A program made the position numbers and the translations under genes. The notes below the pieces were generated by a model. The model saw only the letters and a program-made list of their open reading frames with translations. It was not told the DNA's origin and searched no databases. A stretch of DNA of 26,210 bases from a bacterium (GTDB lineage: Bacteria > RBG-13-66-14): positions 1-26,210 of the forward strand of contig DATKYS010000092.1 of NCBI GenBank assembly GCA_035528375.1. The letters are read 5' to 3'. This document shows, in pieces, positions 20,809-26,113 of the stretch (the first letter of the stretch is position 1; the number at the start of each line of letters is the position of its first letter).

Positions 20809-21972
20809 ATGAATCTAGAAAAGACACCATCGGGGCGCTATTTCAAGCTTCATGAGGAAGTTTTCGCTTTCATTCCCGAGCCACTACCACCGAAGATAGA
20901 TTATGATAAAGAGATGATAAATCTTCTCGTCGAAGCCAACGGAGCCTTGGGCGAGCTTCGGGGGTTGGCTCGGATGACACCCGATCCAAACCTTTTCGTC
21001 CGTCCCTTTATGAATCGTGAAGCTGTACTCTCGTCGAAGATCGAAGGTACGGAAACGGAAATCGAAGAGCTACTGGCGTACCAGGGCGGTCAGCTACGGC
21101 TTCCCGTCCAACCCGGTGAACCCGCTCAGAGGGATTTACGTGAGGTTGTGAATTATGTGGCGGCGATGAACTACGGCCTGAAACGCCATACCGAATTTCC
21201 GATATCGTTGCGGTTGATCCGTGAGCTGCACAAACGCTTGATGTACCGTGTGCGTGGATCGCAAGCCGCTCCAGGTGAATTCCGCCGTAACCAGAACTTC
21301 ATCGGGAAGCTGGGTTCGACCATCGAGGAAGCCAGGTACATACCACCGCTCATCACCGAGATGCACGAATCCCTGGATGGCTTAGAAAAGTACATTCACG
21401 GCTCATCTGACGATGACCGGCTTATCCGGCTTGCATTGATACATTATCAGTTCGAAGCGATTCACCCTTTCAGCGACGGAAACGGAAGGGTGGGCAGGTT
21501 GTTAATCTCGCTTTTAACCGTGTTCTGGGAACTCCTACCGCTGCCTCTTTTATATCTGAGCGCATATCTTGAAAGAAATCGCGATGAATACAACAAATCC
21601 CTGAACCGGATAAGCACGGAAGGTGATTGGTCTGGTTGGTTGAAATTCTTTCTGCGCGGTGTCAGAGAACAGGCCCTGGACGCTACTCAAAGATTCCATC
21701 AGCTTCTCGACTTGCAGTCCCGTTGGCACCGCAACGTAGAAAATCTCGGCTCAAACAAACCGATGGTGCTGGTAGATATGCTCTTTAAGCAGCCAATCAT
21801 ATCCATACCCCTAGTTCAGCGTTTGGTGGGTTACAGAACATACCAGGGAGCCCAGTATTGTGTGCACGGATTGGTCGAGCGAGGAATCCTACATGAGGTG
21901 GCTGAAACCAAACAACCGAAGCTGTATGTAGCTTTAGACATTGTCCGGGTTACGAACAAGCCACTAGCGTAA
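20809..21972 (+). CDS. Fic-domain AMP-transferase (class II, N-terminal inhibitory motif)
   Basis: The 387-residue protein has the Fic active-site motif HPFSDGNGRVGR (His at residue 219), which attaches AMP to target hydroxyls, and an inhibitory-helix motif SSKIEG (residues 75-80, S-X-X-X-E-G) near the N-terminus, so it is self-inhibited in the family manner. The C-terminal 90 residues resemble a winged helix (MLFKQPIISIPLVQRLVGY). The gene and its flanks are distinctly richer in A+T than every neighbour. The ATG at 20809 follows CAGGAT at a short spacing. It stands alone between pgeF and the AmmeMemo gene; no antitoxin partner is seen. Targets are unknown. Confidence 0.92.
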   Translation: MNLEKTPSGRYFKLHEEVFAFIPEPLPPKIDYDKEMINLLVEANGALGELRGLARMTPDPNLFVRPFMNREAVLSSKIEGTETEIEELLAYQGGQLRLPVQPGEPAQRDLREVVNYVAAMNYGLKRHTEFPISLRLIRELHKRLMYRVRGSQAAPGEFRRNQNFIGKLGSTIEEARYIPPLITEMHESLDGLEKYIHGSSDDDRLIRLALIHYQFEAIHPFSDGNGRVGRLLISLLTVFWELLPLPLLYLSAYLERNRDEYNKSLNRISTEGDWSGWLKFFLRGVREQALDATQRFHQLLDLQSRWHRNVENLGSNKPMVLVDMLFKQPIISIPLVQRLVGYRTYQGAQYCVHGLVERGILHEVAETKQPKLYVALDIVRVTNKPLA

Positions 21973-21975
21973 TGA

Positions 21976-22046
21976 TTATAAAAAATGCCATTTTTGTATA
22001 ATCCATCGTAGTAGCAGTATAATCGAGTGTAATCCACGTTAGGTGG
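21976..22046 (+). promoter_or_regulatory. Regulatory region upstream of the AmmeMemo gene
   Basis: TTATAAAAAATG (21976-21987) faces CCATTTTTGTATAA (21988-22001) as a dyad with one bulged base, overlapping a TATAAT (21997-22002). A second TATAAT is at 22018-22023. AGGTGG at 22041-22046 is the ribosome binding site for the ATG at 22052. No strong -35 is seen. The dyad could be an operator, or a weak end-of-gene hairpin for the Fic gene. Confidence 0.4.
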
Positions 22047-22051
22047 TTGAG

Positions 22052-23461
22052 ATGCAGTGGGATCTTGAAACGCTGAAGAAGAAGGCTGCGGGGAAGGTGC
22101 GCGCCCCGGCGGTGGCCGGGAGCTTCTACCCCGCGCCCGCGGATTCCCTGCGCCGCCAGGTCACCCAACTACTCCAGCGGGCCGGAGCCGAACCGCTCTT
22201 GGGTGTCCGCGCCCTCATCGCGCCCCACGCGGGGTACGTTTACTCGGGCGCCATCGCCGCCGGCGCCTACGCCTCCATCGGCGAGAACGCCTTCCGGCGC
22301 GTTGTGGTCATCGCCCCCAGCCACCGGGTGCCCTTCGACGGCGTGTCGGCCTTCGTGGGTGAGGCCTACGAAACGCCGCTCGGTCTCGTCGAGGTGGACC
22401 TGGAGGCCTTGGCGGCGCTGGCCGCCGCCTACCCACTGGAATCCGTAACCCCCGCCCACGGCCTCGAGCACTCCCTGGAAGTGCAACTCCCCTTCATCCA
22501 GCTCGCCCTGCCCGGGACGAAGCTCGTGCCGCTCTTGATGGGCTCCCAGGACGTGGAAACGGCCCGGGGGCTGGGCGCGGCGCTGGCCGAGTCCCTCGGC
22601 GGCGCGGACACCCTGGTCGCGGCCTCGAGCGATCTCTCCCACTACCACGAGGACTCGATGGCCCGGGTCCTGGACGGGGTGGTCGCGGGCCACGTGCGGA
22701 TGCTGGAGCCGGAGAAGCTGCTCGAGTCCGTGGAGTGCGAGCGGGCGGCGGCCTGCGGCGCGGGCCCCATGGCGGCGGCGATGTTCTACGCCCACGGCGT
22801 GGGGGCCACCCTCGCCCGTGTCATCTCCTACGCCACCTCGGGCGACGTCACCGGCGACCGGCGGCAGGTCGTCGGCTACCTTTCCGCCGTGTTCCACATG
22901 CCCGGCCCGAAAGAGGAAGCCCACGATCTGGATCGGGAGGAGAGGCGGCAGTTGCTGCACCTGGCCCGCGAGGCCCTGGAAAACCACTTCGCCGGACGGA
23001 AGCCGCCCGAGCTGACCGAGCCCTCGGCCCGGCTGCGGCAGAAGCGCGGCGCCTTCGTCACCCTGACCGAAGGCGGCCAGCTCCGGGGCTGCATCGGCTA
23101 CGTGGAGCCCGTCGTGCCGCTATGGAAGGCGGTGCGGGAGATGGCGGTGGCGGCGGCCACCGGCGACCCCCGTTTCCCCCCCGTGACGGCCGGGGAGCTG
23201 GAAAACCTGCGCCTCGAGATAAGCGCGCTATCGCCCCTGGCCAGGTGCGACGACCCGAGCCGGGTCACCGTCGGCCGCCACGGCCTCGTGGTGAGACAGG
23301 AAGGCCGGTCGGGTCTCCTCCTGCCCCAGGTCCCCTCGGAGCAGGGGTGGGACCACGAGGAGTTCCTGACCCACACCTGCCGCAAGGCCGGACTCCCGCC
23401 CGACGCCTGGAAGCGGGGCGCCGAGCTCTACACCTTCACCGCCCAGGTGTTCCACGAGTGA
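22052..23461 (+). CDS. AmmeMemoRadiSam system protein B-A fusion (MEMO1 domain plus AMMECR1 domain)
   Basis: The 469-residue protein joins two families. Residues about 15-270 are MEMO1-like (RAPAVAGSFYP, IAPHAGYVYSG, VVIAPSHRVPF, SSDLSHYHEDS, CGAGPMAAAMFYA), with His residues that bind metal in the family. Residues about 290-465 are AMMECR1-like (RGAFVTLTEGGQLRGCIGY, AVAAATGDPRFPPVT, LLLPQVPSEQGWDHEEFL). The third usual partner, an AmmeMemoRadiSam radical SAM protein, is not adjacent. The biochemical role of the system is unsettled. The ATG at 22052 is preferred to the GTG at 22043 because AGGTGG lies 5 bases before it. Downstream genes start 92 bases later. Confidence 0.9.
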   Translation: MQWDLETLKKKAAGKVRAPAVAGSFYPAPADSLRRQVTQLLQRAGAEPLLGVRALIAPHAGYVYSGAIAAGAYASIGENAFRRVVVIAPSHRVPFDGVSAFVGEAYETPLGLVEVDLEALAALAAAYPLESVTPAHGLEHSLEVQLPFIQLALPGTKLVPLLMGSQDVETARGLGAALAESLGGADTLVAASSDLSHYHEDSMARVLDGVVAGHVRMLEPEKLLESVECERAAACGAGPMAAAMFYAHGVGATLARVISYATSGDVTGDRRQVVGYLSAVFHMPGPKEEAHDLDREERRQLLHLAREALENHFAGRKPPELTEPSARLRQKRGAFVTLTEGGQLRGCIGYVEPVVPLWKAVREMAVAAATGDPRFPPVTAGELENLRLEISALSPLARCDDPSRVTVGRHGLVVRQEGRSGLLLPQVPSEQGWDHEEFLTHTCRKAGLPPDAWKRGAELYTFTAQVFHE

Positions 23462-23553
23462 ATCGGTGGAGACGAGGGCCCGCCAAAACCAGACGGAGAA
23501 ATAGCACTTCGATCAACCCTTTGTCATGCCTTCAGTACAATCAAGGAGGAACC

Positions 23554-23808
23554 GTGAAAAAGCTGCTGGTCCTCTTCCTGGCCGCGCTCACCCTGCCGGC
23601 GGCGGCGGGGCTGGTGTACGTGGTGGACGCCGAGTACCAGGCCGACGAGGACGGCCTCTGGTACTTCGTGGACGCCGAGTACCAGGCGGACTTCACGATT
23701 TACTACGTGGACGCCGAGTACCAGGCCGACCTTCTGGTGTATTTCGTGGACGCCGAGTACCAGGCGGGCTGGAACGCGAGCCACGAGCTTGAGGGCCAGC
23801 TGCACTAA
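23554..23808 (+). CDS. Small secreted repeat protein (VDAEYQAD repeats, DUF6150-like)
   Basis: The 84-residue protein starts with a Sec signal peptide (MKKLLVLFLAALTLPAAAG). Nearly all of the mature part is four copies of VDAEYQA(D/G), joined by aromatic-rich linkers (LWYF, TIYY, LVYF), with spacings of 15, 13 and 13 residues. The end GWNASHELEGQLH recalls the tail of small proteins grouped as DUF6150, recognised here from memory only. The alternating polar and aromatic pattern fits short beta-strands, perhaps a solenoid or roll. The GTG at 23554 follows a strong AAGGAGGA. It is between the AmmeMemo gene and a lipoprotein, so a cell-envelope role is likely but not shown. Function is unknown. 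Confidence 0.8.
   Translation: MKKLLVLFLAALTLPAAAGLVYVVDAEYQADEDGLWYFVDAEYQADFTIYYVDAEYQADLLVYFVDAEYQAGWNASHELEGQLH
23623..23765 (+). repeat. Four direct repeats inside the small secreted protein gene
   Basis: The 20-base core gtggacgccgagtaccaggc occurs identically at 23623-23642, 23668-23687, 23707-23726 and 23746-23765. Spacings are 45, 39 and 39 bases, so the frame is kept. Identity at the nucleotide level, including third codon positions, suggests recent duplication or gene conversion. Confidence 0.95.
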
Positions 23809-25339: not shown

Positions 25340-26113
25340 TCATGGACCAAAGAGGATGCTTTTCAGATAGGGTAGCATATCCGGGTCGTTTCGGTGGTTG
25401 AAGCGGAACTCCATTTCTCTGATGAACAGGTGGAAGTTTCGCTTGAAGCCGCCGTGATAGACCTTCAGCCGCCGCTTGGCGTAGCCCCAGAAGTTCTCGA
25501 TGCCGTTTATGTGGCTGCGTCCGTCGGTGAAGGTCTCCCCGTGATTGACGCGCTCGTGATGGAAGCCTTTGAGCGACAGCTTGTTGTAGGCCGAGTAGCC
25601 GTCGGTGTAGACGATGGAGTCCAGCTCGACGTTGGCGAGGATGGCGCCGAGGAGTTGTTCGCCGTCGCAGCGTTTGGGCAGTATCACCCGCACCTCGCCG
25701 CCGCGCTTCAACAGGCCGAAGACGGGTATCTTCCCGGCGGCGCCCCGGCCGCGCTTGCCTTTGCGCACGCCGCCGAAGTAGGATTCGTCGGCCTCCACCG
25801 GCCCTTCGAGCTTCTTAAACTCTTGCCGGCGCTCCTCGGTTATACGCTGTCTAATCCGATGGTAGTATTTGGCTACGGTGTTGGGGTGCGCACCAACTTT
25901 CTTGGCGGCTCTGGCGGCGGGGACCTCCAGCCAGAACAACTCGGCTATCTGTTCGAGCTTCGAGTCGGATAGACCGCGGCGCAGGGGCCTGTGGGTGAAC
26001 TTCCTGCGGCATCGCCTGCACATCCGTCGTCCGTCGGTCAGCCGATAGTGGCTGCGGAAGCCGCAATGCGGACATTTGACATGCCGATCCTCGGACTCTT
26101 TGTTTGCCACCAT
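25340..26113 (-). CDS. IS1595-family transposase
   Basis: The 257-residue protein begins with a zinc ribbon (CPHCGFRSHY then CRRCRRKF), followed by a helix-turn-helix (AARAAKKVGAHPNTVAKYYH), then the DDE domain: EADESYFGGVRKGKRG (first Asp), IVYTDGYSAYNKL (second Asp) and GIENFWGYAKRRL (with the Asn/Glu part). This is the order of ISXO2-like transposases and the length is normal, so the enzyme appears intact. The stop codon overlaps the terminal inverted repeat. The gene converges on the lipoprotein transcript, with a terminator between them. Confidence 0.93.
   Translation of the reverse strand: MVANKESEDRHVKCPHCGFRSHYRLTDGRRMCRRCRRKFTHRPLRRGLSDSKLEQIAELFWLEVPAARAAKKVGAHPNTVAKYYHRIRQRITEERRQEFKKLEGPVEADESYFGGVRKGKRGRGAAGKIPVFGLLKRGGEVRVILPKRCDGEQLLGAILANVELDSIVYTDGYSAYNKLSLKGFHHERVNHGETFTDGRSHINGIENFWGYAKRRLKVYHGGFKRNFHLFIREMEFRFNHRNDPDMLPYLKSILFGP

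What the first reader, a model, noticed from the sequence alone, without database searches (positions are those of the whole stretch)
23554..23808. Tiny secreted protein made almost only of VDAEYQAD repeats
Four identical 20-base cores encode VDAEYQA and are separated by aromatic linkers at 15-, 13- and 13-residue spacing. Identity at synonymous positions implies recent expansion. Acidic and aromatic residues alternate in a way suited to beta-stacking or ligand binding. The function of such proteins is not known.
Basis: partly seen in the sequence, partly recalled or inferred. Interest (0 to 1): 0.65.

Follow-up and report, generated by a model that had tools for sequence, protein, structure and literature searches.

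The report
Shortened relative of seven-crossing knot protein
The tiny secreted repeat protein is a genuine member of a bacterial protein family (DUF6150) whose normal six-repeat form is predicted to share the fold of the most complex knotted protein structure known; this copy is not a fresh expansion but has lost exactly two of its six ancestral repeats, which makes it a natural test of what happens to a protein knot when windings are removed.

Summary
Window 23554-23808 (+) encodes an 84-residue protein with a signal peptide and four VDAEYQA cores (20 identical bases each) at 15, 13 and 13 residues. It is DUF6150 (PF19647, E 1e-18). The interpretation "recent expansion" is wrong. Six repeats are ancestral and almost fixed: 147 of 156 relatives I could read have exactly six. 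The orthologue in the sister genome has the same neighbours and six repeats. The window gene equals that orthologue minus exactly 78 nt, with breakpoints inside a 36-nt direct repeat shared by repeats 1 and 3. So this is a contraction; assembly collapse is not excluded. AlphaFold2 folds the six-repeat orthologue confidently (pLDDT 92.9); its only solved fold matches at Z 2 or more are the three entries of Q9PR55, the 7_1-knotted protein (Z 6.5, 1.9 Å, 60 residues). The four-repeat window protein is predicted less well (pLDDT 74) and matches nothing. It has probably lost the 7_1 topology; whether it is a simpler (5_1) knot, unknotted or unfolded I could not compute. Side observation: the six helix "words" of one protein agree but differ between proteins, mostly without matching codon identity, suggesting structural coupling rather than recent duplication.

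The parts
23543..23549 (+). AAGGAGG, ribosome-binding-site-like sequence
   Evidence: Sequence; conserved in both congeneric orthologues
23554..23808 (+). DUF6150 (PF19647) gene, GTG start, 84 aa, four-repeat form
   Evidence: Pfam 67.5 bits, E 1e-18, profile positions 35-91 of 98 only
23554..23607 (+). signal peptide VKKLLVLFLAALTLPAAA (inferred cleavage before G19)
   Evidence: Lysines, hydrophobic core and AAA end, read from the sequence; matching leaders in the congeners
23623..23642 (+). core of repeat 1 (fusion of ancestral repeats 1 and 3); the 78-nt deletion junction lies in or next to it
   Evidence: Deletion model against L023: any breakpoint across a 36-nt direct repeat fits equally well
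23644..23667 (+). long linker segment DEDGLWYF, which in six-repeat relatives joins the two triads of repeats
   Evidence: Alignments A1/A2; spacing 14-18 instead of 13 in 147 of 147 six-repeat proteins
23668..23687 (+). core of repeat 2 (ancestral repeat 4)
   Evidence: GCG codon signature shared with L023 and L012 repeat 4
23707..23726 (+). core of repeat 3 (ancestral repeat 5)
23746..23765 (+). core of repeat 4 (ancestral repeat 6), followed by the conserved GW
22043..23461 (+). upstream neighbour, Memo-AMMECR1 fusion; fixes orthology of the locus
   Evidence: Pfam; same neighbour in L012 and L023 at 91-92% identity
23876..25270 (+). downstream neighbour, 464-aa lipoprotein-like protein; fixes orthology of the locus
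   Evidence: 81% identical in L023 in the same place; a distant relative also lies beside the six-repeat paralogue in L006

Best explanation
The gene encodes an exported DUF6150 protein. SHOWN: the family's standard form is six 13-residue repeats in two triads (13-13-long linker-13-13), and the window gene is the syntenic six-repeat gene of its genus minus exactly two repeats (78 nt). INFERRED FROM PREDICTION: each repeat is a short beta strand plus a short helical turn (the 'word' DAEYQA), and the six-repeat form wraps into the same fold as Q9PR55, a seven-crossing (7_1) torus knot. INFERRED: slippage or recombination between the identical stretches of repeats 1 and 3 removed two repeats in frame, so the first triad shrank from three repeats to one. 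The shortened chain most likely no longer forms the 7_1 knot and folds, if at all, into a simpler or looser form. Most likely role of the family (inferred, about 40%): a secreted, disulphide-free, very stable small scaffold or binding module in the cell envelope or outside, whose equal words pack or present the same side chains six times and whose knot resists unfolding and proteolysis.
For: PF19647 match. Six repeats in 147 of 156 distinct relatives, including the paralogue in the same genome, L006. Synteny of Memo-AMMECR1, DUF6150 and the 464-aa gene with L023, and of Memo-AMMECR1 and DUF6150 with L012. L023 minus 78 nt gives the window gene with 8 mismatches in 198 nt, 6 synonymous and 2 nonsynonymous codons, and the breakpoint interval is a 36-nt exact repeat. 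AlphaFold2 of the six-repeat orthologue: pLDDT 92.9, pTM 0.82, strand plus short helix per repeat. Foldseek top four hits are all Q9PR55; VIA-align Z 6.5, rmsd 1.9 Å, 60 residues, model 1-81 on chain 25-84, with no other entry shown at Z 2 or more. The knotted core of Q9PR55 is residues 27-83 (PMC9278004), so the match covers it. The window protein is predicted at pLDDT 74.4, pTM 0.52 and matches nothing.
Against: The knot itself was not computed: no coordinates were available. Only two of five AlphaFold2 models of the six-repeat form were confident, AlphaFold2 can ignore topological barriers (PMC10672856), Z 6.5 is modest and Foldseek's TM-score is low (0.33-0.38). The profile search against PDB sequences did not find Q9PR55, so common descent rests on fold alone. 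The low confidence of the four-repeat model may be due partly to the gapped alignment. The deletion could be an assembly collapse of short reads. No expression data were at hand and no functional assay of any member was found.
Confidence: 0.75

Rival explanations
1. Assembly artefact: the real gene has six repeats and a short-read assembler collapsed repeats 1 to 3 across an identical stretch of 36 nt or more.
For: The orthologue has a 36-nt exact direct repeat 78 nt apart, exactly where the window differs. The G001 contig breaks inside the same array (L012). The window genome is a 144-contig assembly.
Against: 36 nt is shorter than the word length most assemblers finish with, and a 150-nt read spans the 114-nt unit (own knowledge). 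L023 itself, another draft assembly, resolved the same repeat. A second two-repeat loss is seen in an unrelated lineage without such long identical stretches (L044 against L042).
Confidence: 0.17
2. Recent expansion of one or two ancestral units.
For: Four identical 20-base cores, less likely than about 1e-3 by codon usage alone.
Against: Six repeats in the sister species and in nearly all relatives across several phyla; position-specific synonymous differences shared between species; an exact 78-nt deletion accounts for the difference.
Confidence: 0.03
3. The four-repeat product is a decaying allele that no longer folds, on its way to loss.
For: Low-confidence model; asymmetric 1+3 arrangement around the long linker; one congener, G003, has no detectable copy; broken copies exist elsewhere (L104, L110).
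Against: Start, ribosome-binding-site-like sequence, leader and reading frame are intact; over the 66 shared codons there are 6 synonymous and only 2 nonsynonymous differences from L023, so selection held for most of the time since the split.
Confidence: 0.3
4. The four-repeat product folds as a simpler torus knot, 5_1: two repeats fewer, one winding fewer.
For: Q9PR55 (7_1) and its homologue P73136 (predicted 5_1) differ by one winding (PMC9278004). In designed knotted tandem repeats three repeats give a trefoil and five a pentafoil (PMC10598012). Both cleanest natural losses, window and L044, are exactly two repeats.
Against: The linker now sits after repeat 1 instead of in the middle; the model is poor and matches nothing; odd-numbered variants also exist (L076 with five, L111 with three).
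Confidence: 0.2

Closest known systems
PF19647 (DUF6150)
   Same: Sequence family; strand-word repeats, conserved alanine at each repeat end, LWYF linker and terminal GW.
   Different: Window protein has four repeats, not six; it matches only profile positions 35-91 of 98.
Q9PR55 of Ureaplasma urealyticum, PDB 8IWA/8IWB/8JRM, 7_1 knot
   Same: Fold of the six-repeat orthologue superposes over 60 residues at 1.9 Å, over the whole knotted core.
   Different: No detectable sequence similarity by profile; 20% identity in the aligned part; shorter repeats. The window's own four-repeat protein shows no match.
P73136, predicted 5_1-knotted homologue of Q9PR55
   Same: Precedent for one winding fewer within one fold family (PMC9278004).
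   Different: Known from prediction only; its sequence was not compared here.
Designed knotted circular tandem repeat proteins (kcTRP)
   Same: Torus knots built from equal repeats, the number of repeats setting the knot (PMC10598012).
   Different: All-helical, designed, much larger repeats.

Membership tests
PF19647 (DUF6150) | Score above Pfam's curated cut-off (27 bits) | tested here: met
   67.5 bits, E 1e-18
PF19647 (DUF6150) | Usual architecture of six repeats, 13-13-long-13-13 (not part of Pfam's own definition) | tested here: not met
   Four repeats, 15-13-13; 147 of 156 relatives have six. The six-repeat paralogue L006 in the same genome meets it
PF19647 (DUF6150) | Export signal, as in most relatives | tested here: inconclusive
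   Leader read by eye only, no dedicated predictor at hand; some relatives (L035, L013, L072, L076) lack one
7_1-knot fold of Q9PR55 | Shared fold over the knotted core, six-repeat orthologue | tested here: met
   Z 6.5, 1.9 Å, 60 residues, chain 25-84; no other fold shown at Z 2 or more
7_1-knot fold of Q9PR55 | Shared fold, four-repeat window protein | tested here: inconclusive
   Model pLDDT 74, pTM 0.52; no Foldseek hit
7_1-knot fold of Q9PR55 | Detectable sequence homology | tested here: inconclusive
   Profile of 26 sequences against PDB sequences did not find Q9PR55
7_1-knot fold of Q9PR55 | Knot type of the backbone | not testable with these tools

The most novel reading that the evidence does not exclude
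A single in-frame 78-nt deletion between direct repeats turned a natural 7_1-knotted protein into a functional 5_1-knotted one, so that in this family the repeat number sets the knot type; the identical words of all repeats, which change in concert, are the symmetric element that lets the chain lose or gain windings and still fold.
Probability: 0.15. Interest if true: 0.88.

Novelty: new variant of a known kind. Interest (0 to 1): 0.5.

Why it matters
How protein knots arise, change complexity and are lost is an open question, and the most complex knot known has had few relatives to study. If DUF6150 has that fold, there are well over a hundred natural tandem-repeat versions with near-fixed repeat number, plus rare natural variants with two repeats fewer (window, L044), one fewer (L076) or three fewer (L111). 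These are ready-made experiments on whether removing windings simplifies the knot or destroys the protein. The rule that all six words of a protein agree while words differ between proteins is a strong, testable constraint on the fold.

Tried and rejected
Recent expansion: rejected. A known PDB relative by sequence: single-sequence and profile searches gave only chance-like hits such as ExbD at E 0.004. AlcCBM31 carbohydrate-binding similarity in Pfam (E 0.054, below cut-off): not pursued. Phage or plasmid origin: no phage record and one weak plasmid match; three IMG/VR contigs carry relatives but the structural search of viral proteins gave nothing. NCBIfam and PHROGs gave no informative match. 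Conserved neighbours across the family that would suggest a function: none beyond local synteny. A strict even-number rule for repeats: not upheld, five- and three-repeat members exist. DUF6150 is not named in any paper of the library. From memory, unverified: later Pfam or InterPro releases may rename PF19647 after the 7_1 knot, which would make the fold of the six-repeat form known already.

Full report
WHAT IS THERE. The ORF at 23554-23808 (+) encodes 84 residues: a lysine-leucine leader ending AAA, then four repeats of strand plus VDAEYQA word, then GWNASHELEGQLH. The array is by far the strongest tandem repeat of the window. Codon usage alone would give seven agreeing codons in four copies with a probability of about 1e-4, and the six that do agree with about 8e-4 (from the values), so the identity is more than codon bias. 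The gene has a conserved AAGGAGG four bases before its GTG start. Pfam places it in PF19647, DUF6150, at E 1e-18.

WHERE IT LIES. The window is contig C92 of a 2.63-Mb, 144-contig genome. The nearest named relatives are Candidatus Coatesbacteria. The gene lies between a Memo-AMMECR1 fusion and a 464-residue lipoprotein-like protein. Memo-AMMECR1 and DUF6150 are neighbours in both congeners (L012, L023), and the 464-aa gene follows in L023. The same genome carries a six-repeat paralogue on another contig (L006) with the word DYESYA, next to a distant relative of the 464-residue protein.

NOT AN EXPANSION. I read repeats in all relatives fetched with one scoring script. Of 156 distinct proteins 147 have exactly six repeats, always 13-13-long-13-13 with the long step 14-18. 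The exceptions are: the window (4); L044 (4); L076 (five by eye, the script sees four); L111 (3); L072 (5, without the linker, fused to a long low-complexity, membrane and C-terminal part); L012 cut by a contig end; L104 and L110 with broken frames; and the divergent L129. The sister orthologue L023 has six repeats. Removing 78 nt from L023 gives the window gene with 8 mismatches in 198 nt, and the breakpoint can lie anywhere in a 36-nt stretch shared exactly by L023 repeats 1 and 3 (alignment). The GCC/GCG signature of each repeat is shared between species position by position. A second, independent loss of 26 residues, from the other triad, separates L044 from the six-repeat L042; both carry a related gene upstream. 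So the array is old and this copy is shortened. Because the shared stretch is long, an assembly collapse cannot be excluded without reads; I give it 17%.

FOLD. With 26 family sequences AlphaFold2 gives the six-repeat orthologue pLDDT 92.9 and pTM 0.82 (two of five models confident), each repeat being a strand followed by a short helical turn. Foldseek's first four hits among solved structures are all Q9PR55 (E 0.007-0.07, probability up to 0.91). VIA-align scores it Z 6.5 at 1.9 Å over 60 residues, model 1-81 on chain 25-84; its three entries are the only ones shown at Z 2 or more. Q9PR55 is the 7_1-knotted protein predicted by Brems et al. with knotted core 27-83 (PMC9278004) and confirmed by crystallography (PMC13352647; PMC11223836). 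The match therefore spans the knotted core. I infer, but could not compute, that six-repeat DUF6150 proteins are 7_1 knots. The window's four-repeat protein gives pLDDT 74.4, pTM 0.52, and no match. Its gapped alignment may contribute, but the 1+3 arrangement around the linker also breaks the 3+3 symmetry of the family.

ALL WORDS CHANGE TOGETHER. Across the 147 six-repeat proteins the six-residue word is 81.5% identical between repeats of one protein, but only 44.8% between proteins at the same repeat and 44.3% at different repeats. The four preceding strand residues behave the other way: 41.9% within, 60.4% between at the same repeat. In 135 of 147 proteins all six copies agree at word position 4, although S, Y, N and others alternate between proteins, and Tyr tends to sit at position 2 with Ser at 4, or the reverse. 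Tandem paralogues side by side in one genome (three in L010, two in L033) carry different words in all or nearly all copies. A rough tree from non-word columns counts about 25 changes at position 4; with 51 columns this is only indicative. Codon identity within words is 0.58 against 0.51 expected from neighbouring genes, and 0.52 against 0.47 in the strands. DNA-level homogenisation thus contributes a little, but most of the uniformity is kept at the protein level, as expected if the words pack against each other or present one surface six times.

FUNCTION AND MECHANISM. No member has a known function that I could find, and neighbours give no common lead. I commit to a secreted, disulphide-free, very stable scaffold or binding module (about 40%). 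For this copy the likeliest fates are partial loss of fold or decay (30%), a simpler knot such as 5_1 (20%), an assembly artefact (17%), or an undecided other fold or oligomer. The 5_1 idea has precedent in P73136 and in designed torus-knot repeats, where three repeats give a trefoil and five a pentafoil (PMC10598012). Against it stand the poor model and the existence of odd-numbered members.

VERDICT. Observation confirmed; 'expansion' refuted and replaced by contraction; membership in DUF6150 met; fold of the family linked to the 7_1 knot by prediction; knot state of this copy open. Interest 0.5.

Noticed in passing
147 six-repeat relatives, e.g. L010:730-1794: The six-residue word of every repeat is kept nearly identical within a protein but differs between proteins, even between tandem paralogues, while the neighbouring strand residues are repeat-specific. 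Tyr moves between word positions 2 and 4 in all copies at once.
   Followed up: partly
L072 (G110), minus strand: Five 13-residue repeats without the long linker, fused through a serine-rich stretch to a membrane segment and a C-terminal domain, 239 aa in all: a DUF6150-like module in a larger protein.
   Followed up: no
L111 (G874) and L076 (G604): Three-repeat and five-repeat DUF6150 proteins, further natural length variants; L076 and L035 also lack a leader.
   Followed up: partly
L006:518-1300: Lipoprotein-like 260-aa protein beside the six-repeat paralogue, a distant relative of the 464-aa neighbour in the window, with a weak hit to the LIC10280 family (E 9e-7, below cut-off). DUF6150 and this lipoprotein family are adjacent at two loci of one genome.
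   Followed up: partly
window 20809-21972: Fic-like protein (motif HPFSDGNGRVGR) whose third-codon GC is 0.56 against about 0.9 for most neighbours, probably acquired from elsewhere.
   Followed up: no
window 25340-26113 (-): IS1595-type transposase (PF12762) two genes downstream, at the edge of the window.
   Followed up: no
L077, L078, L079: DUF6150 relatives on three contigs classed as viral in IMG/VR; whether these are true viral genes or host flanks was not examined.
   Followed up: no
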